In this document: positions 15,315 through 60,111 of the stretch, in pieces
Layout: each line of letters begins with the position of its first letter
Numbering within the stretch: position 1 is the first letter of the stretch
DNA from: Rhea pennata
Lineage: Eukaryota; Chordata; Aves; Rheiformes; Rheidae
Direction of reading: 5' to 3'
DNA: 64,000 bases
Assembly (NCBI RefSeq): GCF_028389875.1
Contig: NC_084676.1
Coordinates: forward strand, 1,674,001 to 1,738,000
Notes under the pieces: model-generated
The model's database searches: none
Seen by the model: the letters and a program-made list of their open reading frames with translations, nothing else
Told to the model about the DNA's origin: nothing
Translations under genes and position numbers: made by a program

Positions 15315-17750
15315 ATGGAAGTCAGATCGGTAGCGCAGCGGCGGGCAGCAGCCAGGCACGTCGCGCTGCTGGCCGTGCTGCTGCCGGTGTGCTGCCGGGC
15401 GGCGCCGGAGCGGCTGCGCTATGCGATTCCCGAGGAGACGGGCAGCGGCTCCCTGGTGGGGCCGCTGGCGCGGGACCTGGGGCTGAGCCGGACAGACCTG
15501 CCGGCGCGGAAGCTCCGCATTGTTTCGGGTGATGAAAAGCAATACTTTTCTCTCGGAGACGATAATGGAAGCCTGCGTGTGAATGAGAGGATAGACCGGG
15601 AGGATATCTGCGGGGACATGTCGCCCTGTGCCCTCAGTTTGGAAGCGATCGTAGAAAACCCATTCAATATATTTCCTGTGAGCGTTACTATTCAGGATAT
15701 CAATGACAACGCGCCACGATTCGGCAGAGAATTTGTGGACCTAGAAATAGTAGAATCCACACCTCCAGGAGCGAGATTCCCACTGGGGAGTGCTAGAGAC
15801 CCCGACATCGGTACTAACTCACTGCAAAACTACCATCTTACCACCAATCCACTATTTTCTTTAGTAGTGAAGGAGAGTCCCGATGGCAAGAAACAAGCGG
15901 AACTGCTACTGGAGAAACAGCTGGATAGAGAAAACCAAGAAAATCACCATTTGATACTGACAGCTGAGGATGGTGGGGATCCAGTCAGATCCGGGACTGC
16001 ACACATTAGGATTAATGTGACCGACGCCAACGACAATCCCCCAGTTTTCACTGAGGAGATCTACAAGGTCCAACTGGAGGAAAACTTGCCTGAGGGCTCC
16101 TTAGCTTTCCGGGTGGAAGCTACTGACAGTGACGAAGGTACAAACGGAGAAATTATCTACTCTTTCAGTGATATCGGAAACAGAGCTCGCCAACTTCTCA
16201 GTCTAGACCCCAGAACAGGGGACATCAAGGTAAGTGGCACATTAGATTTTGAAGAGGCGAAATATTACGAGGCGACTGTTGAAGCCAAAGACGGAGGTGG
16301 GCTGAGTGGGCACGCCAAAGTCCACATAGACATTCTAGACGTGAACGACAACTCCCCGGCAATTTCCCTCCTGCCTATTTTGAACCCAATACCCGAAGAC
16401 TCGGCTCCAGGCACAGTTGTAGCAGTTATCAATGTTCGCGACAGGGACTCTGGCGACAACGGAGATGTGAACTGTTACATCGACGGCGATCTGCCTTTTG
16501 GACTAGAATCAGCTTCCAAACATTCCTACAAACTAGTAACTCAAAACAGCCTGGACAGAGAAAAAACCTCTGATTACAATATCACAATCACTGCCAACGA
16601 CGGCGGGAGCCCGGCGCTCTGCAGCCGCACGACGCTGGCGCTGGCCGTGTCGGACGTGAACGACAACGCGCCGGTGTTCGAGGAAGCGGCCTACAGCGCC
16701 TACGTGGCGGAGAACAACGCGGCGGGCGCGGCGGTGCTGCGCGTCCGCGCGCGGGACGCGGACGCGGGCGCCAACGGGCGCGTGAGCTACTGGCTGGCGG
16801 GTGGCAGCGCGGGCGAGGCGGCGGCGGCGCCCTACGTGTCGGTGGAGGCGCGGAGCGGCGCGCTGTACGCGCAGCGCTCCTTCGACTACGAGCAGTGCCG
16901 CGAGTTCGCCGTGGAGGTGAGGGCGCAGGACGGCGGGTCGCCGGCGCGCAGCTCGACGGCGACGGTGCGCGTCTTCGTGCTGGACCTCAACGACAACGCG
17001 CCGCAGGTGCTGTGGCCGGCGGCGGCGGCGAGCCCCGGCGCGGGCCCGTTCGAGGTGGTGCCGCGGTCGGCCGAGGCGGGCTACCTGGTGGCCAAGGTGG
17101 TGGCGGTGGACGCGGACGCGGGGCGCAACGCGTGGCTGTCGTACGAGCTGCTGCAGGCGACGGAGCCGGCGCTCTTCCGGCTGGGGCTGCACAGCGGCGA
17201 GGTGCGGACGGCGCGGGCCGTGTCGGAGCGCGACGCGGCCCGGCAGCGCCTCGTGGTGGTGGTGAAGGACCACGGGCAGCCGGCGCTGTCGGCCACGGCC
17301 ACGCTGCACGTGGTGCTGGCCGAGAGCTTGCAGGAGGCGCTGCCGGCGCTGAGCGAGCGGGCGGCGGGCGCCGAGTCGCCGGCGGATTTGCAGTTCTACC
17401 TGGTGCTGGCGCTGGCGCTGCTCTGCGCCTTGTTCGTGCTGAGCGTGGCGCTGGCCGTGGCGGCGCGGGTGCGGCGCGCCGGGCCGCCCGCCGTCCTGCG
17501 CTGCCTGGGCGCCGAGCGCTTCGCCGCCGCCGGCCCCGCCTTCCCGGCCGACTTCTGCGAGGGCACCTTGCCCTACTCCTACAACCTGTGCGTGGCGCCG
17601 GGCCGCGCCGTCGCCGAGTGCGCCTTGCTGCCGGCCCCGCTCCCCAGCCGCGCCGTCGACGATCTTCTCAGCGGCGACCCGCCCGCGATGCTGACGCCCA
17701 GCAGCAGCCGTGCCCCGGCAGAGCCGCCGTCGCACCCCGACGCAGTGCAG
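15315..17750 (+). CDS. PCDHGB: Gamma-B-type protocadherin variable exon (gene 3, diverged middle)
   Basis: Variable exon of 812 codons. The ATG at 15315 (MEVRSVAQRR) precedes a signal peptide shared with the array genes (HVALLAVLLPVCCRAAP). EC junctions: DINDNAPRF (128), DANDNPPVF (237), DVNDNSPAI (342), DVNDNAPVF (447), DLNDNAPQV (557); membrane helix about 692-717; cytoplasmic part with TLPYSYNLCV. ERLRYAIPEETGSGSLVG and LPARKLRIVS are gamma-B-like. Exon end CAG|GTCTGT at 17750 is in phase 0, as in the gamma-A genes. Bases about 15332-15510 and 16598 onward are almost identical to the array genes. The middle (late EC1 to EC4) is clearly different and lower in GC, so the gene is a patchwork kept alike at its ends by conversion or exchange. 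Its distinct EC2-EC3 should give a distinct recognition specificity. Confidence 0.93.
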
Positions 17751-18115
17751 GTCTGTAAGCCGACCCCAGCCCTCTTCTCGCACCCTTCCTTATCTTCACA
17801 CCCCCCGCGTCTGCTCGTTTAGCAGCCTGTGCTGCTTCTCCTCGATTGTATTTGCATCTTAACGAGGAAAGGGGAGCGCCTGTTGAGGCGAATGGATGAA
17901 CGAACGAATGACTGAGAACAAGCAACACTCCGGTGACGCCTTGCTTTTAGGAGCAGCAAGTGCTCCCGTAGGGTTCTTCTGCTCACAGTTTGGGAGGTAT
18001 GCCGAGGGGGAACAGACCAGGGCGTAGATCGCGGATCGATGTCAGAGGCAGCAGAGAAATTAGTAACATGAATGTCTGTTGCCACACTGAATGACATGGG
18101 GATTTGCCTATGAGA

Positions 18116-18145
18116 GGCGCGGCGCGGCGCGGCGCGGCGCGGCGC
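18116..18145. repeat. GGCGC VNTR, spacer 1 (6 units)
   Basis: Perfect pentamer repeat between 'ctatgaga' and 'aggccccgcttcg'. Unit counts differ in each array copy (see other entries). Confidence 0.95.
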
Positions 18146-18916
18146 AGGCCCCGCTTCGTTTCCGCACGGGCTCTTCTCGCTCACACTAGTGACTGTGCCG
18201 ACTGGAGCACGCTTTGCTAAGGCGCAGCTGCTCCAGCGCTTGTTGGCAGATGGGCTTCGACCACGTGCATCTCTGCGTAATGCTTATTGGCTATATTAAA
18301 GATAGAAAGGAAGCTCGTGTAAGGTTAGAAAAATGGCCCTTAAGCGGTGTGTGTGTGTTGGTGGGGTGGGGGTGAGAATGAAATGTAATTCACAGCAGCC
18401 TCTGAGGTGTGTGGGAAAGCAAAAGTGAAAGGCAGTTTGGGGAGATAAGAGGGACTGCTAATGGGAGGAATTAACAGTTGCAAAGGCTAAGGCAACGACC
18501 AGCGAAAGGATCGAGGAGGTGGAGATGTCCTCTGAAGCGCTTGTCCCGAGCGTGGAAGCCCCTGGCGGGAGAGCTATCGTCTGCCCCCCGTGCAATGAGG
18601 TCTGTAAGCCTGCACATTCCTCTACGTCCGAGTACACCACATGAAACCTTTTTTGTGCGATGTGGGTTTGGGGGCTGAAGGAATAGCCCCTTGTAACTGA
18701 GAGAAGGCAGTGACGTGGTATTTCCCGTAGGCTGGTAGCTGTCAATGTTTTCCGAGGTTGCTCGTGCTAGTTTCCATTTATGCCTTTATAGCTCACTTGA
18801 TCAGCGTAGGCTGCTCAGCTGGTAAGGAAGGGTGGAAGCTTGTGCTACAGCTCTTACTTCCCGTGCTGATCGACGCGGGTACCGAGGCACCCGACTACGA
18901 CAGCCTATGCGTTCCT

Positions 18917-18938
18917 GAAATACCGCGACCGGTATTTC
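18917..18938. other. Perfect 9-bp hairpin in array spacer
   Basis: GAAATACCG and CGGTATTTC face each other across CGAC. The same hairpin is at 29125-29146, 39373-39394 and 49616-49637, and is missing from the last spacer because of a deletion. Function unknown; a chance palindrome cannot be excluded. Confidence 0.6.
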
Positions 18939-20615
18939 CTCCTGCGACCCGCGTTTTAGGGAGGATCTTCGTTGCTGGGATGTACTGTCAGTCGTGATTT
19001 CGGGAACGAATGCGATGGGTAGCGTTCCGGTACGGGGCTGTCCTGACCTGCAGGAAGGTAGCCAGCCACCCGTACCAGAGTATCCGAGGAGCTCATGGCG
19101 CTCCTTGCTTCTCGCTGTACGCTGAGAGGGGTGAAATGTTTCCTTTCGGGACTGGGCTCCCAGGGGTGCTTCAGATGAGTGAGGGAGGTTCCCTCTCCTG
19201 TTTGAAGCGAAGCCGTGGGAACGTTTTCGTTCCCCGGGTGTGTTGCAGTCTGCAGCAGCTGCTCCGAGTTCTGCCTCGGGAGGCAGGAGGCTGCTGATCT
19301 CTTTGGCTCCCCTTGAGGCACCTCTTATCTCGGCAAGTGCCTGTAAACGGCCAGCTCTCTGAGCTTTAGCGTGTGCTGCCGCTGTGAGCTCTCCCTCGAG
19401 AGGGGAGATGTGAAGACAAACACTCAGACAAAAGGGTGATCGCTGGAGAGTGCTTGCTTGCGTGGTCCTTTCCAACCTCGGATGGCATAAGCTGCGGAGA
19501 GACTGCAAAGGAGAAGAGTCTACGCCTAGAGGGAAATACTGGCCAGCTGCCAATCCGTTGTAAAGGACGGCAGCCGGACGTGTTTCTTCTGTCCTTGACG
19601 TCTGAGGCTGGATCCCCGTTACTCTGGGTCCATGCTCTCTGTTCCAGAGAGCCGAGTGGCTGCTGGGAGTTGCTAGCATTCGTGTTACAGATGTTCCACG
19701 TTCTTTCGGACATGTGCTTTAGGCAGATGAGACTCTCTTTAAGCAACCTGGCACGACCCAGCGTTTTGCCTTAGGTGCTCATTGTTTGTGTCCTTTTTTT
19801 TTTTTTTTTGCCCTTTCCCATGCCAAGTAGATCTTTTTTTATAGCGTGATGATACTTTCCCTCTTCTCTCTTTGCCAAGGGATCCTGTATGGTGGTACTG
19901 AGAAGTAGAATGTCACCAAGCATGGTCCTTTTGTCCCTAATGTGAGCATAGTGTTGTTTAATGAATTTTGCTTGGCGGTCTTACGAACGGTAGGGAATGA
20001 TAAGACCTCCTCAGGTATTTCATATTGAAGAGTCCTTATTTCACTTCTTCTGTGCCATGTGGCATCCTGTCCCTTCCTTTAGCAGCTCCCGCTTGTAGTG
20101 CAGCTTCTTCTTTCAGTGCTGATTATTTGAAATCTGGGCAAGCATTTTGTTAGCTGTAGGACATCCTGTAATCCAAACAATGCTGGAGGAAGGGGTGAGA
20201 AAGTCTGCATTTCTCTTAATGTGTTGCTTCTGAATGACTTTGCTGACCACAAAAGCCTGCTCGCATAGCAACTTTCTTGGTTGTCTTATTGCAGGTTCCT
20301 GTTACCCGCAGGGTGGTACTGGTCCATTTGCTTTACTGTTCATCTTGTAGACAGTGGTGACGTTAGAAGAAGAGGTAAATTAAAGCTGAGGGTATGGCTG
20401 TACTTGGGCCTAAGGTCCCTGAACTTTGTCGTGTGCTGTGCTGATACTAATTATAACACAAGTATTTAAGCAGAGTGAGATTCCATGTAAAGATATGCTC
20501 GCTAGGTAAGTGACCCCTTTGTGTGTCTTACTCTGTCTACAGCAGAGTGTGAGCATTTGTTGGTGAGGAAGAACTTAGTGATGGGGAAGAGTGTGTTCAC
20601 AGGGAACCTTTCTGT

Positions 20616-22607
20616 CCCTTCCTGGCAGAACGGTGTGAAGGTTTGTTCCCAGAGAGTAGGAGGTTTCTTTGCTGATGATGGCAGAGGTTTATGACATTGT
20701 GCACGCCAGGGCACCGGTGTCTCTGTTGCAGCCAACTCTGGCCTTGGCTAAGGAGGAATACAGGGGACTGGGTTGATTTGACTCTGTTCCTAGGTGCTGA
20801 GGACCAGCATCATCTGGGGAAGGTGCTTGGAAAAGGAGTGAAGCTTGTGGTGTGTTCCGAGCCTGACCATCGCTCTTGCCTCGGTGGTGGGGAAACAAGG
20901 CAAGAAGAGTCTTTGTGGGGGCAATGCATTCCCTGGTTGTGCCTAAGATTCAAAGAGAAGAGCCGTCACCTCAAGGAGTGCGGGAGCTGACTGTAGAGAG
21001 AATGTAGACTTCTTGTGGCTCTACAGCATTGTGATAAATCCTCCTGATATCACTGTATGGAAGAGACATGAAAGGTTGAGGTATGACCTGGAGTCCTTTA
21101 CCTGTGTTGGGTATCTCTTCCACATGTTCTTGTCTCAGAATGTTCATCACCTTAAATGTTAATTGGTGGGTAGTGACAGAAAGGTGACTGTGACATATCA
21201 GAATGTAGTGTGTGTTTTCCATTTGGGAAGTACTGCTACCTCCTTCCTAGGTGTGCCTGTGTATTACTGGTTACCTGCTGGAATGTTCTGCTTTGAGAGA
21301 ACAGTGAGTTTCAACCTGTAGATGGGGTAAGGGGCTGGAACAGCAAAATCACTGCTTGCTAAAATTCAAATTGTGAAGTGTATGTGCATATGACACAGGT
21401 ACCCCTTGACCTAAGCAGGGAATCACCATTGTGCCCTTCCTAAGGTGCTTTCCTATGTATTGTGAGTGGAGATGAACAACTGTATGTTTACAGAGGGCAG
21501 CCTATCCTTAGGCCTGGAAAGTATGGGTGAAGCGTGCAAAAGCAAGCTGGAGTACGGTTCCCAGTAGGGAGTGGAGCCCGTGATGTCCTTATGAGAGGAC
21601 AGAATGCCTTCTTAGTTCTTCGGAGAATTGGAGAGCGCTTGTGTCCAGTCGATATCACTGTCTCAGTGGACCTGAGAGGTCGGAGGCAACGCACTACAGT
21701 GAACACTGCGCCAGCCTAGAGACGTGCTCTAAAATCAATCAATACACCTGCTGCTTATGAAAGATGTATGTTTCAGTTTTGGTTTCTTCAAGCCTTTATC
21801 AGGTGGGAGTTGAGTGACGGCTCTACCAGTTCCTGGAGATTGCATCTCTCCCGTTCTCTTCAGGCCTCCAACGGACACTGTCGGAAGAGCTTTTGTGGTT
21901 TCTTGGGTTTGATTTTTTGATGGCAGGTCCCGTGTCACTGAAGGCTTCTGAACACTTGCCTCTCTGTGGGAATGTGGTCACACTGGCATCCTCTACATGC
22001 GTCCAGCTTTAGCGTGTTGATGTGACCCACAATGTGTGGATGCACTAGGTACTCAGGAACCCGAGAGCAGTGGAAGGTTGCTTGTTTATTATGAGGTCTG
22101 GGTCAAAGGTGGGCATAGTGAGCACTCACGCAGGTACTGAGACCGGGAGCACTTAGGCCACATTTATAGTGCATAACGTCTTGTGATACCTCTCATGATC
22201 TTCAGCTTACAGTACAGCTTCTTTTGTGACTGGTAGTGACTTGGAAGAGGTAGCTCACTAGTAGAATACCCTATACCCCAAGTACTGTAAGAGTTCTTCA
22301 CGGTGGAAGGAATGTGTTGCCCTTCATAATTACGTGAAGAGAGCTCGCACACTTTGAGTGGTGATGCTACGATGCGGCAGGGACTGCAGTATGCATAGCA
22401 CGATGTGTCCTGAGAGAAGAAGGTGAGACGTGGATTCCAGGGAATATGAGGGTTTTTGGATGGGGAGAAGTCCCTTCCTGGCAGAACGGTGTGAACCTTT
22501 GTTCCCAGAGAGTGGGAGGATTCTTTGCTGATGTAGATTCAGGCTTTTGATGCAGTGCACGCTAGAGCAGAAGTCTGTTGCAGCTAATTCTGGCCTTGGC
22601 TTAGGAG
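20616..22607. repeat. Direct repeat inside the spacer (20616-20755 and 22472-22607)
   Basis: Two copies of about 140 bp share 'cccttcctggcagaacggtg', 'gttcccagagagt(a/g)ggagg', 'tttgctgatg' and 'tctggccttggct(a/t)aggag'. They lie about 1.86 kb apart and recur in each array spacer, so this duplication is older than the array. Confidence 0.75.
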
Positions 22608-25253
22608 AGATGAAAGTTCAAAAAGAGCTTCTATGAGGCCACGTAGTTGCTTCATCACATGCACCTTTGTAGCACCGTGTTGAAGGCAGGCTGAAGAATT
22701 CTGTTTGTGTAGATGTAGGGGAGGTTGCAGAGTTGTCTGAATTATAATTTTAAACGAATACAAGGTGAGTGTGAACACTGGTCGTAGATGTAATATTCCA
22801 CCCACAGCTGTGGTTTCATCCGGTCTTATTTTCTGTGAAGTGTGGCTGAGGAAATGTGGCTATGGCCTATGCCGTGAGCATTGTGAGGAGCCTCCTCAGT
22901 GGATGTTGCTTACTAGATACCTTTACTATATACCTCCTACAAGCAATATAAACTACAATATCAGGGCATGATTCCTTCATTTCAGTGTGCTTCAAATTCC
23001 AGCCTTGGTTGTGGTTGTCACCTAAAGCCAGGCCTCAAAGTGTCTGACCATGGTTTAAAGGAGATGTAAATGCTCTAAATGTACGCGTGGAGGAGCAGTT
23101 TCCATAGATATCTTAAACGTTTTCAGCTGAAAACAGGAAGACTCTGATGAACACGCTTGCTTAGTATGTCACGCAGTGCTCTCGCCTATTGCTTGTGCAC
23201 GGCCTAAAGTCAGATGTTCTCGATGCTGCAAGTAAAGGGTCGTCAGGCAGTGCATTGACGGTGAGAGGCTGGGTGTGAAAGTGGGGATAGGTGGGTCAGC
23301 GGTGCTTTTGGCTAGGCAATATATTGATTTCATGCCTTGTGCCACCGCCCGTGGCAGTTATGCTAGGTCTCTGTTGTCCCATCCTTAAAGGCGGTGACAG
23401 TCCTCTGAAGAATGTGTCTTCAGGCAGTAATGTTGTATGTACAAAGGTGCTGCTTGACTAGAATGCCTCGTAATTCCTGTGTGAAACCTCATTCTTCTAC
23501 CCGTACGACCTTTTAACACCAGGATGGAGAGTCTCATCACAGTTGCATGTAGCTTTCCCAGGCCTGAGCCACCTTCAAGCTGAGTTTGCTAGATGTCTTC
23601 CTAGGTCACATTTACAGAACGGGCTGTTGCTTTGGAACCTGTCAGTGTTGTTTTGCAGCGAACACTTAATTCCCTAGACAAGCTTGCAGCCACCTGAAGA
23701 CTGAATTCTTCCCCGTGAGGAAGACAAAGCTGAGCAGCTAAACCAGCATCTCCCATACATGCTGTTCTATCCCCCACGAGACTTAGGCTCCGGCGGAGGC
23801 CTGCAATAAGCCTTCTGGCTTCCTAGGCGCAGGAGGAAGCAGGCCGTATGGTACACAAATCCACGCACAGGGATGAACACTTGTGAAAACAGACCCCTTC
23901 CTATCTAGCCCAACATAAGAATTCAGGGCCTGGCTTGCAACTTGAGGTCTCACTGACCTTCCAGATGCTCTGTGGGTGCCTTTTTAGGCAGAGCTGTGGC
24001 AAAACAGCTGTAAATCACACATGTGAAATACATGCCTCCAAGGGGCCAGTTGGAGGTTTCGGAATCACTAATCCTCAAAAATGATAGCGAGATCTGAGCT
24101 ACTGCTTTGTGATAAACGAGATCTCTTTACTGCACATGCCTGTCACCTCTGATGCCTCTCCTTCAAGCTGGCCACACACTAATGTGGTATAGTCTGGTGC
24201 AGAGTGCTTCTAGGAAATACCAGCTACTTCTGGGTTGCTCTGATCTCTTAGAGGCCTGTGGACACATGGCCTGCCTCTCGGTGTGCCATCCTGCATTGCC
24301 CAGGACTGGAACCAGGCCTTCTCAAGTGGCAGAAGGAAGGTCACAGTTGCAGGCAGAAGTAATTCCAGCTGAATAGGATAGCCTAAGCCTGGATAAGGCC
24401 TGGTAACAGGACTTTTGCCTAGAAGCTCCCCAAGGCAACAAGGTCTCAGGCATAACAGTGTGAAATCATTTTTACAGCAGACCTCAGACTGCAGAGTTTC
24501 AGCCAAGCGTACCCTGAGCTTTTTATGGACAGCGCTAAGAATCAGCATCAGGATGTGCTTAGGGCAAACAATCTACGTTGTAGATTGGCCAGCCTGGTAC
24601 TGATATAGAAAAAGAGCAAGTTTAATAGGCAGCTCAGTTATGTTAGTATGCTAACACGTACGATACCTTTAGGGTCCTTTCTTCTCAATCAATATTATTT
24701 GCTTATAAAAAGGAAAGAACAAACCTCAGGCACCTACATATAAAAGTAAGGTGAGACTTAGACAAGCTGGAAAGCGTTTGGAGGCCTGCCATAAAATCAC
24801 GGACCTGATTCCCAAACTGAGAAGGAGGAATAGCTTGGTCTTCTAAGATTTCCTACTCCTTCTCCCTTTTGCTTGCAACTAAGCACAGCGCTTTACCAGA
24901 CTGGTGTGGCTTACCGGAAATAGAAGTGTGAAATATTCAGACGAGCCCCTTCCCAACCTGGGCATGCGTTTCATCCTCTGCATGAGAAATCTTATTTATC
25001 ACTCTGTCCTATTTATTTCTTTCTTTGCCTTCGTCCCGAGTCAGGGAATGAGTCACACTCACAGAGACGGAAGAAGGGAAAGAAAAAGAACAAAAAATAC
25101 TGACATAGGGTTATTGCTTTCAAAGTCTTCTCAAGCTATGAAATCATTGTACGGGTCTGTTGCTTTTACTATCCTGTAGTGGATAACTACAGTAGTGAAG
25201 AAATACCTCGTTGTGCGAGTGCGAGCCGGCTGCAGTGGCGGCGCGGGGACTCC

Positions 25254-25280
25254 GGGTGCCGCTGTTGCCCGATGCGAAGC
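25254..25280 (+). promoter_or_regulatory. CSE-like promoter element of gamma-B gene 4
   Basis: GGGTGCCGCTGTTGCCCGAT lies about 250-270 bp before the ATG at 25526 in a CpG-rich region. It is shared exactly with the three next gamma-B genes. Confidence 0.6.
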
Positions 25281-25303
25281 GCCGCCGCAGCCGCCGCCGC
25301 AGA

Positions 25304-25304
<1 letters not shown>

Positions 25305-25334
<30 letters not shown>
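25305..25334. repeat. GGAGCC hexamer VNTR, gene 4 (5 units)
   Basis: Five perfect hexamers between the CSE-like element and the ATG, so in the 5' UTR or promoter. Other copies have 5, 6 and 3 units. Confidence 0.95.
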
Positions 25335-25335
<1 letters not shown>

Positions 25336-45734: not shown

Positions 45735-45758
45735 CGCCGCCGCAGCCGCCGCCGCAGA

Positions 45759-45759
<1 letters not shown>

Positions 45760-45795: not shown

Positions 45796-45796
<1 letters not shown>

Positions 45797-48416: not shown

Positions 48417-51400
48417 GTCTGTAAGCCGACCCCAGCCCTCTTCTCGCACCCTTCCTTATCTGCACACCCCCCGCGTCTGCTCGTTTGTAGTTTTCGTAAG
48501 CTTTAGCAGCCTGTGCTGCTTCTCCTCGATTGTATTTGCATCTTAACGAGGAAAGGGGAGCGCCTGTTGAGGCGAATGGATGAACGGACGAATGACTGAG
48601 AACAAGCAACACTCCGGTGACGCCTTGCTTTTAGGAGCAGCAAGTGCTCCCGTAGGGTTCTTCTGCTCACAGTTTGGGAGGTATGCCGAGGGGGAACAGA
48701 CCAGGGCGTAGATCGCGGATCGATGTCAGAGGCAGCAGAGAAATTAGTAACATGAATGTCTGTTGCCACACTGAATGACATGGGGATTTGCCTATGAGAG
48801 GCGCGGCGCGGCGCGGCGCGGCGCGGCGCGGCGCGGCGCGGCGCAGGCCCCGCTTCGTTTCCGCACGGGCTCTTCTCGCTCACACTAGTGACTGTGCCGA
48901 CTGGAGCACGCTTTGCTAAGGCGCAGCTGCTCCAGCGCTTGTTGGCAGATGGGCTTCGACCACGTGCATCTCTGCGTAATGCTTATTGGCTATATTAAAG
49001 ATAGAAAGGAAGCTCGTGTAAGGTTAGAAAAATGGCCCTTAAGCGGTGTGTGTGTGTTGGTGGGGTGGGGGTGAGAATGAAATGTAATTCACAGCAGCCT
49101 CTGAGGTGTGTGGGAAAGCAAAAGTGAAAGGCAGTTTGGGGAGATAAGAGGGACTGCTAATGGGAGGAATTAACAGTTGCAAAGGCTAAGGCAACGACCA
49201 GCGAAAGGATCGAGGAGGTGGAGATGTCCTCTGAAGCGCTTGTCCCGAGCGTGGAAGCCCCTGGCGGGAGAGCTATCGTCTGCCCCCCGTGCAATGAGGT
49301 CTGTAAGCCTGCACATTCCTCTACGTCCGAGTACACCACATGAAACCTTTTTTGTGCGATGTGGGTTTGGGGGCTGAAGGAATAGCCCCTTGTAACTGAG
49401 AGAAGGCAGTGACGTGGTATTTCCCGTAGGCTGGTAGCTGTCAATGTTTTCCGAGGTTGCTCGTGCTAGTTTCCATTTATGCCTTTATAGCTCACTTGAT
49501 CAGCGTAGGCTGCTCAGCTGGTAAGGAAGGGTGGAAGCTTGTGCTACAGCTCTTACTTCCCGTGCTGATCGACGCGGGTACCGAGGCACCCGACTACGAC
49601 AGCCTATGCGTTCCTGAAATACCGCGACCGGTATTTCCTCCTGCGACCCGCGTTTTAGGGAGGATCTTCGTTGCTGGGATGTACTGTCAGTCGTGATTTC
49701 GGGAACGAATGCGATGGGTAGCGTTCCGGTACGGGGCTGTCCTGACCTGCAGGAAGGTAGCTAGCCACTCGTACCAGAGTATCCGAGGAGCTCATGGCGC
49801 TCCTTGCTTCTCGCTGTACGCTGAGAGGGGTGAAATGTTTCCTTTCGGGACTGGGCGCCCAGGGGTGCTTCAGATGAGTGAGGGAGGTTCCCTCTCCTGT
49901 TTGAAGCGAAGCCGTGGGAACGTTTTCGTTCCCCGGGTGTGTTGCAGTCTGCAGCAGCTGCTCCGAGTTCTGCCTCGGGAGGCAGGAGGCTGCTGATCTC
50001 TTTGGCTCCCCTTGAGGCACCTCTTATCTCGGCAAGTGCCTGTAAACGGCCAGCTCTCTGAGCTTTAGCGTGTGCTGCCGCTGTGAGCTCTCCCTCGAGA
50101 GGGGAGATGTGAAGACAAACACTCAGACAAAAGGGTGATCGCTGGAGAGTGCTTGCTTGCGTGGTCCTTTCCAACCTCGGATGGCATAAGCTGCGGAGAG
50201 ACTGCAAAGGAGAAGAGTCTACGCCTAGAGGGAAATACTGGCCAGCTGCCAATCCGTTGAAAAGGACGGCAGCCGGACGTGTTTCTTCTGTCCTTGACGT
50301 CTGAGGCTGGATCCCCGTTACTCTGGGTCCATGCTCTCTGTTCCAGAGAGCCGAGTGGCTGCTGGGAGTTGCTAGCATTCGTGTTACAGATGTTCCACGT
50401 TCTTTCGGACATGTGCTTTAGGCAGATGAGACTCTCTTTAAGCAACCTGGCACGACCCAGCGTTTTGCCTTAGGTGCTCATTGTTTGTGTCCTTTTTTTT
50501 TTTGCCCTTTCCCATGCCAAGTAGATCTTTTTTTATAGCGTGATGATACTTTCCCTCTTCTCTCTTTGCCAAGGGATCCTGTATGGTGGTACTGAGAAGT
50601 AGAATGTCACCAAGCATGGTCCTTTTGTCCCTAATGTGAGCATAGTGTTGTTTAATGAATTTTGCTTGGCGGTCTTACGAATGGTAGGGAATGATAAGAC
50701 CTCCTCAGGTATTTCATATTGAAGAGTCCTTATTTCACTTCTTCTGTGCCATGTGGCATCCTGTCCCTTCCTTTAGCAGCTCCCGCTTGTAGTGCAGCTT
50801 CTTCTTTCAGTGCTGATTATTTGAAATCTGGGCAAGCATTTTGTTAGCTGTAGGACATCCTGTAATCCAAACAATGCTGGAGGAAGGGGTGAGAAAGTCT
50901 GCATTTCTCTTAATGTGTTGCTTCTGAATGACTTTGCTGACCACAAAAGCCTGCTCGCATAGCAACTTTCTTGGTTGTCTTATTGCAGGTTCCTGTTACC
51001 CGCAGGGTGGTACTGGTCCATTTGCTTTACTGTTCATCTTGTAGACAGTGGTGACGTTAGAAGAAGAGGTAAATTAAAGCTGAGGGTATGGCTGTACTTG
51101 GGCCTAAGGTCCCTGAACTTTGTCGTGTGCTGTGCTGATACTAATTATAACACAAGTATTTAAGCAGAGTGAGATTCCATGTAAAGATATGCTCGCTAGG
51201 TAAGTGACCCCTTTGTGTGTCTTACTCTGTCTACAGCAGAGTGTGAGCATTTGTTGGTGAGGAAGAACTTAGTGATGGGGAAGAGTGTGTTCACAGGGAA
51301 CCTTTCTGTCCCTTCCTGGCAGAACGGTGTGAAGGTTTGTTCCCAGAGAGTAGGAGGTTTCTTTGCTGATGATGGCAGAGGTTTATGACATTGTGCACGC

Positions 51401-54400
51401 CAGGGCACCGGTGTCTCTGTTGCAGCCAACTCTGGCCTTGGCTAAGGAGGAATACAGGGGACTGGGTTGATTTGACTCTGTTCCTAGGTGCTGAGGACCA
51501 GCATCATCTGGGGAAGGTGCTTGGAAAAGGAGTGAAGCTTGTGGTGTGTTCCGAGCCTGACCATCGCTCTTGCCTCGGTGGTGGGGAAACAAGGCAAGAA
51601 GAGTCTTTGTGGGGGCAATGCATTCCCTGGTTGTGCCTAAGATTCAAAGAGAAGAGCCGTCACCTCAAGGAGTGCGGGAGCTGACTGTAGAGAGAATGTA
51701 GACTTCTTGTGGCTCTACAGCATTGTGATAAATCCTCCTGATATCACTGTATGGAAGAGACATGAAAGGTTGAGGTATGACCTGGAGTCCTTTACCTGTG
51801 TTGGGTATCTCTTCCACATGTTCTTGTCTCAGAATGTTCATCACCTTAAATGTTAATTGGTGGGTAGTGACAGAAAGGTGACTGTGACATATCAGAATGT
51901 AGTGTGTGTTTTCCATTTGGGAAGTACTGCTACCTCCTTCCTAGGTGTGCCTGTGTATTACTGGTTACCTGCTGGAATGTTCTGCTTTGAGAGAACAGTG
52001 AGTTTCAACCTGTAGATGGGGTAAGGGGCTGGAACAGCAAAATCACTGCTTGCTAAAATTCAAATTGTGAAGTGTATGTGCATATGACACAGGTACCCCT
52101 TGACCTAAGCAGGGAATCACCATTGTGCCCTTCCTAAGGTGCTTTCCTATGTATTGTGAGTGGAGATGAACAACTGTATGTTTACAGAGGGCAGCCTATC
52201 CTTAGGCCTGGAAAGTATGGGTGAAGCGTGCAAAAGCAAGCTGGAGTACGGTTCCCAGTAGGGAGTGGAGCCCGTGATGTCCTTATGAGAGGACAGAATG
52301 CCTTCTTAGTTCTTCGGAGAATTGGAGAGCGCTTGTGTCCAGTCGATATCACTGTCTCAGTGGACCTGAGAGGTCGGAGGCAACGCACTACAGTGAACAC
52401 TGCGCCAGCCTAGAGACGTGCTCTAAAATCAATCAATACACCTGCTGCTTATGAAAGATGTATGTTTCAGTTTTGGTTTCTTCAAGCCTTTATCAGGTGG
52501 GAGTTGAGTGACGGCTCTACCAGTTCCTGGAGATTGCATCTCTCCCGTTCTCTTCAGGCCTCCAACGGACACTGTCGGAAGAGCTTTTGTGGTTTCTTGG
52601 GTTTGATTTTTTGATGGCAGGTCCCGTGTCACTGAAGGCTTCTGAACACTTGCCTCTCTGTGGGAATGTGGTCACACTGGCATCCTCTACATGCGTCCAG
52701 CTTTAGCGTGTTGATGTGACCCACAATGTGTGGATGCACTAGGTACTCAGGAACCCGAGAGCAGTGGAAGGTTGCTTGTTTATTATGAGGTCTGGGTCAA
52801 AGGTGGGCATAGTGAGCACTCACGCAGGTACTGAGACCGGGAGCACTTAGGCCACATTTATAGTGCATAACGTCTTGTGATACCTCTCATGATCTTCAGC
52901 TTACAGTACAGCTTCTTTTGTGACTGGTAGTGACTTGGAAGAGGTAGCTCACTAGTAGAATACCCTATACCCCAAGTACTGTAAGAGTTCTTCATGGTGG
53001 AAGGAATGTGTTGCCCTTCATAATTACGTGAAGAGAGCTCGCACACTTTGAGTGGTGATGCTACGATGCGGCAGGGACTGCAGTATGCATAGCACGATGT
53101 GTCCTGAGAGAAGAAGGTGAGACGTGGATTCCAGGGAATATGAGGGTTTTTGGATGGGGAGAAGTCCCTTCCTGGCAGAACGGTGTGAACCTTTGTTCCC
53201 AGAGAGTGGGAGGATTCTTTGCTGATGTAGATTCAGGCTTTTGATGCAGTGCACGCTAGAGCAGAAGTCTGTTGCAGCTAATTCTGGCCTTGGCTTAGGA
53301 GAGATGAAAGTTCAAAAAGAGCTTCTATGAGGCCACGTAGTTGCTTCATCACATGCACCTTTGTAGCACCGTGTTGAAGGCAGGCTGAAGAATTCTGTTT
53401 GTGTAGATGTAGGGGAGGTTGCAGAGTTGTCTGAATTATAATTTTAAACGAATACAAGGTGAGTGTGAACACTGGTCGTAGATGTAATATTCCACCCACA
53501 GCTGTGGTTTCATCCGGTCTTATTTTCTGTGAAGTGTGGCTGAGGAAATGTGGCTATGGCCTATGCCGTGAGCATTGTGAGGAGCCTCCTCAGTGGATGT
53601 TGCTTACTAGATACCTTTACTATATACCTCCTACAAGCAATATAAACTACAATATCAGGGCATGATTCCTTCATTTCAGTGTGCTTCAAATTCCAGCCTT
53701 GGTTGTGGTTGTCACCTAAAGCCAGGCCTCAAAGTGTCTGACCATGGTTTAAAGGAGATGTAAATGCTCTAAATGTACGCGTGGAGGAGCAGTTTCCATA
53801 GATATCTTAAACGTTTTCAGCTGAAAACAGGAAGACTCTGATGAACACGCTTGCTTAGTATGTCACGCAGTGCTCTCGCCTATTGCTTGTGCACGGCCTA
53901 AAGTCAGATGTTCTCGATGCTGCAAGTAAAGGGTCGTCAGGCAGTGCATTGACGGTGAGAGGCTGGGTGTGAAAGTGGGGATAGGTGGGTCAGCGGTGCT
54001 TTTGGCTAGGCAATATATTGATTTCATGCCTTGTGCCACCGCCCGTGGCAGTTATGCTAGGTCTCTGTTGTCCCATCCTTAAAGGCGGTGACAGTCCTCT
54101 GAAGAATGTGTCTTCAGGCAGTAATGTTGTATGTACAAAGGTGCTGCTTGACTAGAATGCCTCGTAATTCCTGTGTGAAACCTCATTCTTCTACCCGTAC
54201 GACCTTTTAACACCAGGATGGAGAGTCTCATCACAGTTGCATGTAGCTTTCCCAGGCCTGAGCCACCTTCAAGCTGAGTTTGCTAGATGTCTTCCTAGGT
54301 CACATTTACAGAACGGGCTGTTGCTTTGGAACCTGTCAGTGTTGTTTTGCAGCGAACACTTAATTCCCTAGACAAGCTTGCAGCCACCTGAAGACTGAAT

Positions 54401-55947
54401 TCTTCCCCGTGAGGAAGACAAAGCTGAGCAGCTAAACCAGCATCTCCCATACATGCTGTTCTATCCCCCACGAGACTTAGGCTCCGGCGGAGGCCTGCAA
54501 TAAGCCTTCTGGCTTCCTAGGCGCAGGAGGAAGCAGGCCGTATGGTACACAAATCCACGCACAGGGATGAACACTTGTGAAAACAGACCCCTTCCTATCT
54601 AGCCCAACATAAGAATTCAGGGCCTGGCTTGCAACTTGAGGTCTCACTGACCTTCCAGATGCTCTGTGGGTGCCTTTTTAGGCAGAGCTGTGGCAAAACA
54701 GCTGTAAATCACACATGTGAAATACATGCCTCCAAGGGGCCAGTTGGAGGTTTCGGAATCACTAATCCTCAAAAATGATAGCGAGATCTGAGCTACTGCT
54801 TTGTGATAAACGAGATCTCTTTACTGCACATGCCTGTCACCTCTGATGCCTCTCCTTCAAGCTGGCCACACACTAATGTGGTATAGTCTGGTGCAGAGTG
54901 CTTCTAGGAAATACCAGCTACTTCTGGGTTGCTCTGATCTCTTAGAGGCCTGTGGACACATGGCCTGCCTCTCGGTGTGCCATCCTGCATTGCCCAGGAC
55001 TGGAACCAGGCCTTCTCAAGTGGCAGAAGGAAGGTCACAGTTGCAGGCAGAAGTAATTCCAGCTGAATAGGATAGCCTAAGCCTGGATAAGGCCTGGTAA
55101 CAGGACTTTTGCCTAGAAGCTCCCCAAGGCAACAAGGTCTCAGGCATAACAGTGTGAAATCATTTTTACAGCAGACCTCAGACTGCAGAGTTTCAGCCAA
55201 GCGTACCCTGAGCTTTTTATGGACAGCGCTAAGAATCAGCATCAGGATGTGCTTAGGGCAAACAATCTACGTTGTAGATTGGCCAGCCTGGTACTGATAT
55301 AGAAAAAGAGCAAGTTTAATAGGCAGCTCAGTTATGTTAGTATGCTAACACGTACGATACCTTTAGGGTCCTTTCTTCTCAATCAATATTATTTGCTTAT
55401 AAAAAGGAAAGAACAAACCTCAGGCACCTACATATAAAAGTAAGGTGAGACTTAGACAAGCTGGAAAGCGTTTGGAGGCCTGCCATAAAATCACGGACCT
55501 GATTCCCAAACTGAGAAGGAGGAATAGCTTGGTCTTCTAAGATTTCCTACTCCTTCTCCCTTTTGCTTGCAACTAAGCACAGCGCTTTACCAGACTGGTG
55601 TGGCTTACCGGAAATAGAAGTGTGAAATATTCAGACGAGCCCCTTCCCAACCTGGGCATGCGTTTCATCCTCTGCATGAGAAATCTTATTTATCACTCTG
55701 TCCTATTTATTTCTTTCTTTGCCTTCATCCCGAGTCAGGGAATGAGTCACACTCACAGAGACGGAAGAAGGGAAAGAAAAAGAACAAAAAATACTGACAT
55801 AGGGTTATTGCTTTCAAAGTCTTCTCAAGCTATGAAATCATTGTACGGGTCTGTTGCTTTTACTATCCTGTAGTGGATAACTACAGTAGTGAAGAAATAC
55901 CTCGTTGTGCGAGTGCGAGCCGGCTGCAGTGGCGGCGCGGGGACTCC
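48417..55947. other. Array spacer 4 (no gene recognised)
   Basis: Near-identical to spacers 1-3, with the GGCGC VNTR at 48800-48844. It shares 'gtacgcgtgg' (near 53775) and 'taccagactgg' (near 55588) with spacer 1 but not with spacers 2 and 3, while other sites group differently, so sites do not follow one branching order. Confidence 0.75.
48800..48844. repeat. GGCGC VNTR, spacer 4 (9 units)
   Basis: 45 bp of perfect pentamers. Confidence 0.95.
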
Positions 55948-55973
55948 GGGTGCCGCTGTTGCCCGATGCGAAG
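55948..55973 (+). promoter_or_regulatory. CSE-like promoter element of gamma-B gene 7
   Basis: Same element as before genes 4-6, about 240-260 bp before the ATG at 56208; a 3-unit GGAGCC VNTR follows at 55999-56016, so the element sits 12-18 bp nearer the start. Confidence 0.6.
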
Positions 55974-55998
55974 CGCCGCCGCAGCCGCCGCCGCAGAC

Positions 55999-56016
55999 GG
56001 AGCCGGAGCCGGAGCC
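55999..56016. repeat. GGAGCC hexamer VNTR, gene 7 (3 units)
   Basis: Three perfect hexamers, the shortest version. Confidence 0.95.
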
Positions 56017-56207
56017 GCCGCAGCCTCCCGCGGGGCGGCTGCTCGCTCGCGCAGTGCCCGCCTCGGAGCCGGAAGAGCGGAGCGGAGCAGAGGCGGACTG
56101 GGTCTCGCCGCGCCGGTCGACCTGTGAGCCAGCTGCGGGGGATCTGCAGAGCAGGGCGGCGTCGGAGGACGGGAGGCGAGGCGCGGCGAAGGCGGCGAGC
56201 GGCGGGG

Positions 56208-58637
56208 ATGGGAGCGAGGCAGGGAGCGCAGCGGCGGGCAGCAGCCAGGCACGTCGCGCTGCTGGCCGTGCTGCTGCCGGTGTGCTGCCGGGCGGCGCCG
56301 GAGCGGCTGCGCTATGCGGTTCCCGAGGAGACGGGCAGCGGCTCCCTGGTGGGGCCGCTGGCGCGGGACCTGGGGCTGAGCCCGGCAGACCTGCCGGCGC
56401 GGCAGCTGCGCATCAGCTCGGAGAAGCCCTACTTCGCGGTGGGCGCGGAGAACGGGCACCTGTACGTGAGCGAGAGGCTGGACCGGGAGGAGATGTGCGG
56501 CGACTCCGTGTCCTGCTCGGTCAGTTTCGAGGTGGTGCTGCAGAACCCGCTCAACGTTTTCCACGTCGACGTGGCCATCCAGGACATCAATGACAACTCG
56601 CCGGTCTTCAGCAAGGCAGCTCTCGATCTGGAGATCGGGGAATTGATGCTTCCTGGTGCGCGGTTTCCGCTGGAGATGGCGCAAGATCCGGATGTGGGAA
56701 GCAACTCGCTGCTCAGCTACCAGCTCACTGACAGCCCCTCCTTCTCGCTGGCAGTGAAGGAGAGCCCGGATGGAAGCAGGCAGCCCGAGTTGGTGTTAGA
56801 AGCAGCTTTGGATCGTGAGAAGCAGAGCTCCTTCCAGATGGTGCTGACGGCGGTGGACGGCGGGTCTCCGGCGAGGTCGGGCACGGTGCAGATTCGCATC
56901 AACGTGACAGACGCGAATGACAACGCGCCCGTGTTCAGCAAAAGCGCCTACGAGGCGCGAGTGCGGGAGAACGCGCCGGCGGGGTCGCTGGTGCTGCGGG
57001 TGCGAGCCACGGACGCGGATGCGGGCTCCAACGGCCGCGTCTCCTACGCCTTCAGCAACGTGCCCGAGGCTGTCCGCGCTGTCTTCAGCATAGACAGCGA
57101 CAGCGGCGACATCCGAAACGAAGGGACTCTGGATTTCGAGGAGAGGAATAGATACAGCTTCGGCGTGGAAGCGAGGGACGGGGGCGGGCTCAGCGGTCAC
57201 TGCAAAGTCCTCGTAGAGGTCACAGACGAGAACGACAACGCGCCCGAGATAACGACGCTGTCGGTGTCGAGCCCGGTGCCCGAGGACTCCCCGCTCGGCA
57301 CCGTCGTCGCCCTCGTCAAGGTGCGAGACCGGGACTCTGGCGACAACGGGAAGGTGCGGTGCGAGCTGGAGGGCGAGTCGCCGTTCGCCATCGTGGCGTC
57401 GTCGGGCAGCTCGTACAAGGTGGTGACGGCGAGCGCGCTGGACAGGGAGCGGGCGGCCGAGCACAACGTGACGGTGGTGGCGAGCGACGGCGGGAGCCCG
57501 GCGCTCTGCAGCCGCACGACGCTGGCGCTGGCCGTGTCGGACGTGAACGACAACGCGCCGGTGTTCGAGGAAGCGGCCTACAGCGCCTACGTGGCGGAGA
57601 ACAACGCGGCGGGCGCGGCGGTGCTGCGCGTCCGCGCGCGGGACGCGGACGCGGGCGCCAACGGGCGCGTGAGCTACTGGCTGGCGGGCGGCAGCGCGGG
57701 CGAGGCGGCGGCGGCGCCCTACGTGTCGGTGGAGGCGCGGAGCGGCGCGCTGTACGCGCAGCGCTCCTTCGACTACGAGCAGTGCCGCGAGTTCGCCGTG
57801 GAGGTGAGGGCGCAGGACGGCGGGTCGCCGGCGCGCAGCTCGACGGCGACGGTGCGCGTCTTCGTGCTGGACCTCAACGACAACGCGCCGCAGGTGCTGT
57901 GGCCGGCGGCGGCGGCGAGCCCCGGCGCGGGCCCGTTCGAGGTGGTGCCGCGGTCGGCCGAGGCGGGCTACCTGGTGGCCAAGGTGGTGGCGGTGGACGC
58001 GGACGCGGGGCGCAACGCGTGGCTGTCGTACGAGCTGCTGCAGGCGACGGAGCCGGCGCTCTTCCGGCTGGGGCTGCACAGCGGCGAGGTGCGGACGGCG
58101 CGGGCCGTGTCGGAGCGCGACGCGGCCCGGCAGCGCCTCGTGGTGGTGGTGAAGGACCACGGGCAGCCGGCGCTGTCGGCCACGGCCACGCTGCACGTGG
58201 TGCTGGCCGAGAGCTTGCAGGAGGCGCTGCCGGCGCTGAGCGAGCGGGCGGCGGGCGCCGAGTCGCCGGCGGATTTGCAGTTCTACCTGGTGCTGGCGCT
58301 GGCGCTGCTCTGCGCCTTGTTCGTGCTGAGCGTGGCGCTGGCCGTGGCGGCGCGGGTGCGGCGCGCCGGGCCGCCCGCCGTCCTGCGCTGCCTGGGCGTC
58401 GAGCGCTTCGCCGCCGCCGGCCCCGCCTTCCCGGCCGACTTCTGCGAGGGCACCTTGCCCTACTCCTACAACCTGTGCGTGGCGCCGGGCCGCGCCGTCG
58501 CCGAGTGCGCCTTGCTGCCGGCCCCGCTCCCCAGCCGCGCCGTCGACGATCTTCTCAGCGGCGACCCGCCCGCGATGCTGACGCCCAGCAGCAGCCGTGC
58601 CCCGGCAGAGCCGCCGTCGCACCCCGACGCAGTGCAG
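56208..58637 (+). CDS. PCDHGB: Gamma-B-type protocadherin variable exon (gene 7, array copy)
   Basis: 810 codons with the array layout and a phase-0 donor after 58637. It is the most distinct array copy: Val for Ala in SVSCS (EC1), KESPDGSRQ for KETASGKRQ at about residues 184-192 (EC2), NRYSFG for NEYSFG and CKVLVE for CQVLVE in EC3 (about 307-335), and GVERF for GAERF in the cytoplasmic part. The KESPDG form also occurs in gene 3, so gene 7 either keeps older sequence or received tracts from a gene-3-like donor. Confidence 0.94.
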
Positions 58638-60111
58638 GTCTGTAAGCCGACCCCAGCCCTCTTCTCGCACCCTTCCTTATCTTCACACCCCCCGCGTCTG
58701 CTCGTTTGTAGTTTTCGTAAGCTTTAGCAGCCTGTGCTGCTTCTCCTCGATTGTATTTGCATCTTAACGAGGAAAGGGGAGCGCCTGTTGAGGCGAATGG
58801 ATGAACGGACGAATGACTGAGAACAAGCAACACTCCGGTGACGCCTTGCTTTTAGGAGCAGCAAGTGCTCCCGTAGGGTTCTTCTGCTCACAGTTTGGGA
58901 GGTATGCCGAGGGGGAACAGACCAGGGCGTAGATCGCGGATCGATGTCAGAGGCAGCAGAGAAATTTGTAACATGAATGTCTGTTGCCACACTGAATGAC
59001 ATGGGGATTTGGCTATGAGAGGCGCGGCGCGGCGCGGCGCGGCGCGGCGCGGCGCAGGCCCCGCTTCGTTTCCGCACGGGCTCTTCTCGCTCACACTAGT
59101 GACTGTGCCGACTGGAGCACGCTTTGCTAAGGCGCAGCTGCTCCAGCGCTTGTTGGCAGATGGGCTTCGACCACGTGCATCTCTGCGTAATGCTTATTGG
59201 CTATATTAAAGATAGAAAGGAAGCTCGTGTAAGGTTAGAAAAATGGCCCTTAAGCGGTGTGTGTGTGTTGGTGGGGTGGGGGTGAGAATGAAATGTAATT
59301 CACAGCAGCCTCTGAGGTGTGTGGGAAAGCAAAAGTGAAAGGCAGTTTGGGGAGATAAGAGGGACTGCTAATGGGAGGAATTAACAGTTGCAAAGGCTAA
59401 GGCAACGACCAGCGAAAGGATCGAGGAGGTGGAGATGTCCTCTGAAGCGCTTGTCCCGAGCGTGGAAGCCCCTGGCGGGAGAGCTATCGTCTGCCCCCCG
59501 TGCAATGAGGTCTGTAAGCCTGCACATTCCTCTACGTCCGAGTACACCACATGAAACCTTTTTTGTGCGATGTGGGTTTGGGGGCTGAAGGAATAGCCCC
59601 TTGTAACTGAGAGAAGGCAGTGACGTGGTATTTCCCGTAGGCTGGTAGCTGTCAATGTTTTCCGAGGTTGCTCGTGTTAGTTTCCATTTATGCCTTTATA
59701 GCTCACTTGATCAGCGTAGGCTGCTCAGCTGGTAAGGAAGGGTGGAAGCTTGTGCTACAGCTCTTACTTCCCGTGCTGATCGACGCGGGTACCGAGGCAC
59801 CCGACTACGACAGCCTATGCGTGAGCTCTCCCTCGAGAGGGGAGATGTGAAGACAAACACTCAGACAAAAGGGTGATCTCTGGAGAGTGCTTGCTTGCGT
59901 GGTCCTTTCCAACCTCGGATGGGATAAGCTGCGGAGAGACTGCAAAGGAGAAGAGTCTACGCCTAGAGGGAAATACTGGCCAGCTGCCAATCCGTTGTAA
60001 AGGACGGCAGCCGGACGTGTTTCTTCTGTCCTTGACGTCTGAGGCTGGATCCCCGTTACTCTGGGTCCATGCTCTCTGTTCCAGAGAGCCGAGTGGCTGC
60101 TGGGAGTTGCT
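58638..60111. other. Shortened array spacer 5 (no gene recognised)
   Basis: It holds the GGCGC VNTR (59021-59055) and then the deletion that removes both spacer hairpins. 'gctcgtgttag' (near 59671) links it to spacer 3. No gene. Confidence 0.75.
59021..59055. repeat. GGCGC VNTR, spacer 5 (7 units)
   Basis: 35 bp of perfect pentamers. Confidence 0.95.

What the first reader, a model, noticed from the sequence alone, without database searches (positions are those of the whole stretch)
16598..60111. Young 10.2-kb tandem array of near-identical gamma-B protocadherin genes
Four full head-to-tail units (10205, 10203, 10258 and 10221 bp) and a truncated fifth carry exons plus 7.5-kb spacers with very few differences. 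Clustered protocadherins act as a diverse barcode, so adding near-copies that should share binding specificity is unexpected. It could raise dosage or promoter-choice odds for one specificity, or be raw material for new ones. Period lengths come from counting one shared block; identity is by eye.
Basis: partly seen in the sequence, partly recalled or inferred. Interest (0 to 1): 0.8.

Follow-up and report, generated by a model that had tools for sequence, protein, structure and literature searches.

The report
Young tandem array of γB protocadherin exons
Four almost identical copies of a brain cell-recognition exon sit in a row, probably copied recently by ordinary recombination, and the densest differences between them fall in the part of the protein thought to decide which cells recognise each other.

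Summary
Units of 10205, 10203, 10258 and 10221 bp lie head to tail from 16598, and a truncated fifth ends at 60111. Full units are 99.60–99.81% identical at ungapped positions, spacers included. Unit boundaries lie inside exons, so there are four near-identical γB variable exons (E4–E7) plus an upstream γB-like exon (E3) sharing only the EC4-to-cytoplasmic half and 3' flank. All five frames are open and end at the same splice donor. Five copies of a ~3.1-kb block around four copies of ~7.1 kb fit unequal crossing-over.

Shared binding specificity is only partly supported. Of 59 substitution columns, 27 lie in EC2–EC3, 6.3% of the unit; 26 form patches private to E5 or E7. Synonymous sites are raised there too, so conversion from, or retention of, a diverged functional paralogue fits better than point mutation. 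One E5 change (Leu→Trp, position 115) aligns with γA8 Ile116, the site of a listed trans mutant. E4 and E6 differ at two mature residues. I expect two to four specificities, chosen stochastically (inferred). Reads, species, expression and the rest of the genome could not be examined.

The parts
16598..26802 (+). Tandem unit 1 (10205 bp): 3' half of exon E3, spacer, promoter and 5' half of exon E4
26803..37005 (+). Tandem unit 2 (10203 bp): 3' half of E4, spacer, promoter and 5' half of E5
37006..47263 (+). Tandem unit 3 (10258 bp): 3' half of E5, spacer, promoter and 5' half of E6
47264..57484 (+). Tandem unit 4 (10221 bp): 3' half of E6, spacer, promoter and 5' half of E7
57485..60111 (+). 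Truncated fifth unit: 3' half of E7 and flank; lacks about 0.47 kb after 59822, then continues to 60111
15315..17750 (+). γB-like variable exon E3, coding part (812 codons): EC1–EC3 divergent from the array, EC4-to-cytoplasm and 3' flank shared with it; 79% protein identity to E5
25526..27955 (+). γB variable exon E4 (810 codons)
35729..38158 (+). γB variable exon E5 (810 codons)
45987..48416 (+). γB variable exon E6 (810 codons)
56208..58637 (+). γB variable exon E7 (810 codons)
36157..36214 (+). E5-private patch in EC2: 8 substitutions in 58 bp; mature residues 113, 115, 116, 117 changed (G/L/M/L to A/W/T/V), 3 further codons synonymous
56753..56790 (+). E7-private patch A in EC2: 11 substitutions in 38 bp; mature residues 155, 156, 157, 159 changed
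57128..57206 (+). E7-private patch B in EC3: 7 substitutions in 79 bp; mature residues 284 (E to R) and 302 (Q to K) changed
25256..25269 (+). CSE-like promoter element with CGCT box, 270 bp upstream of the E4 start codon; identical copies at 35459, 45711 and 55950
   Evidence: CSE description from PMC4978886
38542..38601 (+). GGCGC pentamer run downstream of each exon; copy number differs by unit: 6 (18116), 12 (38542), 9 (48800), 7 (59021); short broken run after E4 near 28339

Best explanation
This is a recently amplified run of Pcdh γB variable exons, made by repeated unequal (non-allelic homologous) recombination between homologous stretches running from the EC4 coding part of one γB exon into its 3' flank. 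Each copy keeps its own start codon, CSE-like promoter element, open reading frame and splice donor. Each is therefore expected to be one more independently chosen promoter spliced to the shared γ constant exons (inferred). Most of each unit is near-identical. E5 and E7 hold short foreign-looking tracts in EC2 and EC3, most simply explained by short gene-conversion tracts from, or unerased tracts of, other functional γB paralogues. The array therefore probably adds two to four recognition specificities: E4 and E6 nearly or fully the same, E5 probably distinct, E7 possibly distinct. Shown: array, open frames, promoter elements, patch clustering and raised synonymous divergence in the patches. 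Inferred: the recombination route, conversion, expression and specificity.
For: Array and identities. Five copies of 16598–19674-like sequence around four copies of the rest. γB identity of E4: best PDB match γB4, E 4.9e-217; Pfam cadherin and cadherin cytoplasmic domains. Open frames with identical donors: 5 of 5. CSE-like element identical in 4 of 4 array exons. 27 of 59 substitution columns fall in EC2–EC3 against 6.3% of length, binomial p 2.4e-17; EC2 62.9 per kb against spacer 2.4 per kb; 11 sites in 60 bp where 5000 random placements never exceeded 7. Synonymous divergence of E5 or E7 against E4 or E6 in EC2–3 is 2.3–5.9%, against 0–0.2% in the rest of the exon; pN/pS in EC2–3 for these pairs is 0.32–0.50, which fits a functional donor. 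Conflicting 2:2 site patterns among units (2, 2 and 1 sites) suggest exchange between copies. Position 115 (Leu; Trp in E5) aligns with γA8 I116 and, by numbering offset only, with β6 S117. PMC8901172 lists γA8 I116R among its mutants and says that mutations designed to disrupt γA8 trans binding did so; S117I is one of the five changes that together convert β6 to β8 binding. Stochastic choice among duplicates with identical promoters: PMC4151104.
Against: No reads, second individual or second assembly were available, so collapse or stacking is not excluded. The donor of the patches is not in the window. Polarity with E3 as outgroup is mixed: of E7's 20 private coding sites E3 shares the private state at 7, the majority at 9, neither at 4; of E5's 9, the split is 2, 2 and 5. 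So the tracts may be relics, not imports. Sites inside a patch are not independent, so the binomial p overstates the number of events (about three). Clustering is not confined to EC2–3: with EC2–3 left out, the densest 600 bp holds 9 sites, reached by 41 of 5000 random placements, and lies in the non-coding flank, seven of the sites there being private to the flank of E4. Outside EC2–3 each pair of exons has 1–5 non-synonymous and 0–1 synonymous differences, too few to show constraint. PMC5106212 finds γB specificity spread over the whole EC1–4 interface, and PMC5001838 describes the EC2 β4–β5 loop, where I place E7's patch A, as less isoform-specific in γ isoforms. No binding or expression data exist here.
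Confidence: 0.62

Rival explanations
1. Assembly artefact: units from two haplotypes, or repeated paths through one unit, were stacked, and the real array is shorter.
For: Between-unit divergence outside EC2–3 (13–20 differences in about 9.6 kb) is of the size of ordinary heterozygosity (recalled). Fugu draft scaffolds of Pcdh clusters were misassembled (PMC1852091, passage).
Against: No gap letters in the window. If two two-unit haplotypes were stacked, U1/U3 and U2/U4 should be the closest pairs outside EC2–3; observed 18 and 15 against 20, 13, 20 and 15 for the other pairs, so no allelic pairing. The five downstream pentamer runs all differ in length, and at least three distinct EC2–3 protein sequences occur among the four exons.
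Confidence: 0.17
2. Real array, but functionally one specificity: the copies only raise the odds or dose of one γB identity and the EC2/EC3 patches are neutral.
For: E4 and E6 mature proteins differ at two positions only; most single-residue β6 mutants kept β6-like binding (PMC8901172); pN/pS in EC2–3 is below 1 for the pairs with patches, so there is no sign of positive selection.
Against: E5 carries four neighbouring amino-acid changes including one at a position aligned with γA8 I116; double and triple β6 mutants were intermediate.
Confidence: 0.2
3. The units are old and kept alike by concerted evolution; EC2/EC3 patches are remnants of old divergence that homogenisation did not erase.
For: Conversion among units is suggested by conflicting site patterns. 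EC2–EC3 is described as the region least homogenised in other species (PMC4978886, PMC1852091, passages). E3 against E4 and E2 against E8 show the same shape: alike ends and divergent middle. Outgroup polarity does not exclude it.
Against: Near-identity covers some 6.6 kb of spacer as well, 99.6–99.8%. Remnants of 38–79 bp would need conversion tracts ending on both sides of each patch, against one event per patch for import.
Confidence: 0.2

Closest known systems
Lineage-specific Pcdh γb expansion in the green anole (PMC2764143; abstract and section 6 seen)
   Same: Gene-number growth in the γb subgroup by gene duplication.
   Different: The anole γb4–23 group has average per-branch synonymous rates of 0.11–0.26 per codon in every ectodomain and little conversion. 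Here the copies differ at 0–0.2% of synonymous sites outside EC2–3, and spacers are copied too.
Highly similar Pcdh γ2 isoforms of Xenopus tropicalis, confirmed by SMRT sequencing of a BAC (PMC4978886; passages and section 14 seen)
   Same: Highly similar γ isoforms in a real locus; CSE about 200 bp upstream of the start codon.
   Different: Authors state that EC2 and EC3 appear not to be subject to gene conversion; here the densest differences sit there in short tracts.
Engineered mouse Pcdhα dup(2-c2) allele (PMC4151104; abstract, sections 7 and 10 seen)
   Same: Tandem duplicate variable exons with identical promoter sequence.
   Different: A 218-kb engineered duplication in the α cluster; expression was measured there and not here.
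β6/β8 isoform pair (PMC8901172; passages and section 5 seen)
   Same: Close paralogues whose specificity is set by a few interface residues.
   Different: 92% identical in EC1–4 and tested by SPR and aggregation; here 2–12 of 810 residues differ between copies and nothing has been tested.

Membership tests
Clustered protocadherin γB variable exon | One long exon with signal peptide, six cadherin repeats, transmembrane segment and short cytoplasmic part | tested here: met
   Open frames of 810 codons in 4 of 4 array exons, and 812 for E3; Pfam Cadherin_2 plus five Cadherin stretches and Cadherin_C_2 in 8 of 8 exons; E5 model shows repeated strands and a helix at 688–719 (mean pLDDT 73.9, pTM 0.46)
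Clustered protocadherin γB variable exon | Closest relatives are γB isoforms | tested here: met
   Best PDB matches of E4 are γB4 then γB2; only solved structures were compared, and E3, E5, E6, E7 were not searched there on their own
Clustered protocadherin γB variable exon | Ends in a splice donor joined to γ constant exons | tested here: inconclusive
   CAG|GTCTGTAAG in 5 of 5 γB exons; constant exons were not searched for or seen, and no transcripts are available
Clustered protocadherin γB variable exon | CSE with CGCT box about 200 bp upstream of the start codon | tested here: met
   GTGCCGCTGTTGCC at 25256, 35459, 45711, 55950, 258–276 bp upstream; E3 has CACT in place of CGCT. I wrote the search pattern from these promoters, and its likeness to a CSE is by eye against the published description
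Clustered protocadherin γB variable exon | Stochastic single-neuron expression and isoform-specific homophilic binding | not testable with these tools
   No expression or binding data
Tandem duplication by non-allelic homologous recombination | Direct units bounded by homologous sequence present n+1 times | tested here: met
   Four full units and a fifth copy of the first ~3.1 kb, all in one orientation
Tandem duplication by non-allelic homologous recombination | Copy-number variation between individuals | not testable with these tools
   One sequence only; requests to search the own genome did not complete
Interlocus gene conversion | Short tracts of clustered synonymous and non-synonymous differences with sharp edges | tested here: met
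   Three patches of 38–79 bp; raised synonymous divergence
Interlocus gene conversion | An identifiable donor paralogue | tested here: not met
   No donor in the 64-kb window; the rest of the cluster could not be searched, so conversion remains an inference

The most novel reading that the evidence does not exclude
Newly duplicated protocadherin genes are given new recognition identities almost at once by short gene-conversion tracts that land in EC2 and EC3. Conversion would then act here as a generator of specificity, and not, as usually described, as a homogeniser that spares EC2/EC3.
Probability: 0.3. Interest if true: 0.75.

Novelty: new member of a known kind. Interest (0 to 1): 0.5.

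Why it matters
How a self-recognition code gains new letters is unsettled: a fresh copy starts with its parent's specificity and must move away from it while neighbours pull it back by conversion. A young array with near-identical backgrounds and a handful of changes at or near the trans interface is close to a natural experiment. Four constructs in an aggregation assay would show how few changes make a new isoform. It also gives natural duplicates with near-identical promoters, in which promoter choice can be followed by unit-specific variants.

Tried and rejected
Patch donors: best ungapped matches to the three patches were sought on both strands of the window. The sister copies (7–11 mismatches) and then much more distant exons (22 or more mismatches) came up, so no donor is claimed.

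CTCF-like scans with two mismatches allowed gave many scattered hits on both strands and were not used. In one search the printed CSE for E6 and E7 is displaced because the upstream hexamer repeat differs in length; the positions are used.

RNA families at gathering threshold and tRNA/tmRNA genes: none in the window. Mobile elements: I gave Pfam 10 of the 67 frames listed; 9 had no match and one had a weak sub-cutoff match, E 0.0013. This does not exclude repeats, coding or not.

Positive selection: pN/pS in EC2–3 is 0.32–0.50 for E5 or E7 against E4 or E6, and 0.34 for E5 against E7, so no claim of positive selection is made. Outside EC2–3 the counts per pair are 1–5 non-synonymous and 0–1 synonymous, too few to judge.

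Polarity of the patches: tested with E3 and mixed, so neither import nor relic is proved.

Literature: nine searches. In the bird-directed ones (12, 13, 21, 45, 60) no listed paper describes, in its title or the shown start of its abstract, a young γB array of this kind. The lists were cut (25 of 127 and 25 of 11,177 papers), so this is a statement about those listings only. The suspicion that this is a bird or reptile is by eye and untested; the species is unknown.

Counts: one search uses the four full units and leaves out the partial fifth and all gap columns. EC repeat boundaries there are approximate and set by me. An age of a few hundred thousand years would follow from about 0.18% mean divergence outside EC2–3 (from the pair counts) and a recalled rate near 2e-9 per site per year; species and rate are unknown and conversion resets the clock, so it is not used.

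Full report
WHAT IS THERE. The window is 64,000 bp without N, 56.1% G+C. It holds eight plus-strand frames of 700 codons or more, called E1 to E8 here. All eight match Pfam cadherin and cadherin cytoplasmic families. E4 matches Pcdh γB4 best among solved structures, over EC1–6. For E8 the strongest full-length match is also γB4, the longest γ chain in that list, but the EC1-plus-start-of-EC2 piece matches γA9 and γA8 best. E2 was not searched in the PDB; it is called γA-like because it is 88% identical to E8 in DNA. E1's full-length best match is again γB4, while its EC1-plus-start-of-EC2 piece matches Pcdh β1 best. E3 was not searched either; it is called γB-like from 79% protein identity to E5. 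The order is therefore β-like, γA-like, γB-like (E3), four γB (E4–E7), γA-like.

THE ARRAY. K-mer offsets and self-alignment give direct repeats of about 10.2 kb. Identity between full units is 99.60–99.81% at ungapped positions. The fifth copy ends its first stretch at 59822, lacks about 0.47 kb, and goes on to 60111. The left edge, 16598, lies inside the EC4 coding part of E3. Upstream of it E3 and E4 are 90% alike at the signal peptide, then 78%, then 51–65% per 150 bp; downstream they are 97–100% alike to the end of the compared stretch. So E3 shares its 3' half and flank with the array but not its recognition half, and the near-identical genes number four.

GENE INTEGRITY. E3 (812 codons) and E4–E7 (810 codons each) have ATG starts, no internal stops and the same donor, CAG|GTCTGTAAG. 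A CSE-like element with a CGCT box, GTGCCGCTGTTGCC, lies 258–276 bp upstream of each of the four array starts; CSEs are described about 200 bp upstream (PMC4978886). I wrote the pattern from these promoters, so the likeness to a CSE is by eye. E3 carries CACT at the same place. The last 150 bp before the start codon are identical to E4 in E5 and E7 and differ at one base in E6. Nothing seen here marks these five as pseudogenes.

HOW IT AROSE. Five copies of a ~3.1-kb stretch (3' half of the exon plus flank) surround four copies of the remaining ~7.1 kb. That is the arrangement left by unequal crossing-over between two homologous stretches in direct orientation. Outside EC2–EC3 the four units differ pairwise at 13–20 sites, with no close pairs. 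Five sites split the units two against two in three conflicting ways, as expected if units still exchange sequence.

THE DIFFERENCES. Among the four full units there are 59 substitution columns. EC2–EC3 is 6.3% of the unit and holds 27 of them. Density is 62.9 per kb in EC2, 21.6 in EC3 and 2.4 in the spacer; the 3' flank (8.6), signal plus EC1 (7.8) and the first part of EC4 (4.0) lie between, and the 3' half of the coding part has 1.7. With EC2–3 left out, a weaker cluster remains in the 3' flank: 9 sites in 600 bp, reached by 41 of 5000 random placements. Of the 27, 26 lie in three patches: one private to E5 (58 bp, 8 sites) and two private to E7 (38 bp, 11 sites; 79 bp, 7 sites). Synonymous sites are affected as well: E5 or E7 against E4 or E6 gives pS 2.3–5.9% in EC2–3 and 0–0.2% elsewhere, with pN/pS of 0.32–0.50 in EC2–3. 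That pattern fits tracts copied from, or left over from, a diverged but working γB gene, and argues against piecemeal point mutation under positive selection. No donor is in the window, and E3 as outgroup does not settle direction.

WHAT THEY MAY DO. Clustered Pcdhs bind in trans through EC1–EC4, EC1 to EC4 and EC2 to EC3 (PMC5001838, PMC8901172, PMC5106212; passages and single sections seen). E5 differs from its sisters at mature positions 113, 115, 116 and 117. These lie just after the first EC2 strand, in the E5 model between strands at precursor residues 138–142 and 152–154. Position 115 follows the conserved glutamate and aligns with γA8 Ile116. By numbering offset alone it also aligns with β6 Ser117 (that sequence was not displayed). 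PMC8901172 lists γA8 I116R among its mutants and reports that mutations designed to disrupt γA8 trans binding inhibited it; S117I is one of five changes that together turn β6 binding into β8 binding. Most single β6 changes were not enough, so altered specificity of E5 is likely but not certain. In γB isoforms, nearby position 111 is a named EC2:EC3 contact (PMC5106212); it does not vary between these copies. E7 changes 155–157 and 159 in an EC2 loop that I take to be the β4–β5 loop, said to matter less in γ isoforms, plus 284 and 302 in EC3 with charge changes and 70 in EC1. E4 and E6 differ in the mature protein only at 200 (V/I) and 319 (T/P). Since PMC5106212 spreads γB specificity over the whole EC1–4 interface, single changes in EC1 or EC4 may count too.

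EXPRESSION. In mice with an engineered Pcdhα tandem duplication, duplicates with identical promoters were still expressed stochastically. Among 45 scorable of 163 single cells none expressed both copies of one isoform; the authors caution about the small number. Copies farther from the enhancer were expressed less (PMC4151104). By analogy each copy here would be one more ticket in the promoter lottery. That is inference.

ARTEFACT. Stacked haplotypes cannot be excluded without reads. Against it: no allelic pairing of units, five different downstream pentamer runs, and at least three EC2–3 protein sequences. I put artefact at about 0.17.

VERDICT. A sound observation of a known kind of event, a young γB duplication array, with one feature beyond it: the densest differences between fresh copies sit in the recognition domains, in tracts. 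This contrasts with the published statement that EC2 and EC3 appear not to be subject to gene conversion (PMC4978886).

Noticed in passing
7200-7649 and 60528-60977: The γA-like exons E2 and E8 are 100% identical over the promoter and 5' leader and 94–98% identical from about 8850 on, but only 57–69% in several 150-bp stretches between (EC2–EC3 and nearby): a mosaic like that of E3 against E4, on the γA side.
   Followed up: partly
2780-2900: In the β-like frame E1 the only plausible start codon and signal-peptide-like stretch seen are out of frame with the ectodomain (read by eye), so E1 may be a pseudogene or hold a sequence error.
   Followed up: partly
15069-15082: E3's CSE-like element reads GTGTCACTGTTGGC, with CACT where the array exons have CGCT; it could affect promoter choice.
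   Followed up: no
322-1163, 11028-12702, 23201-25151: Sequences far upstream of E1, E3 and E4 share old homology (about 64–86%; 96% for 322–924 against 11581–12183), suggesting older segmental duplications or a shared repeat.
   Followed up: no
28058-28668: The 3' flank of E4 carries seven substitutions private to it and a short broken GGCGC run near 28339, unlike the other flanks.
   Followed up: no
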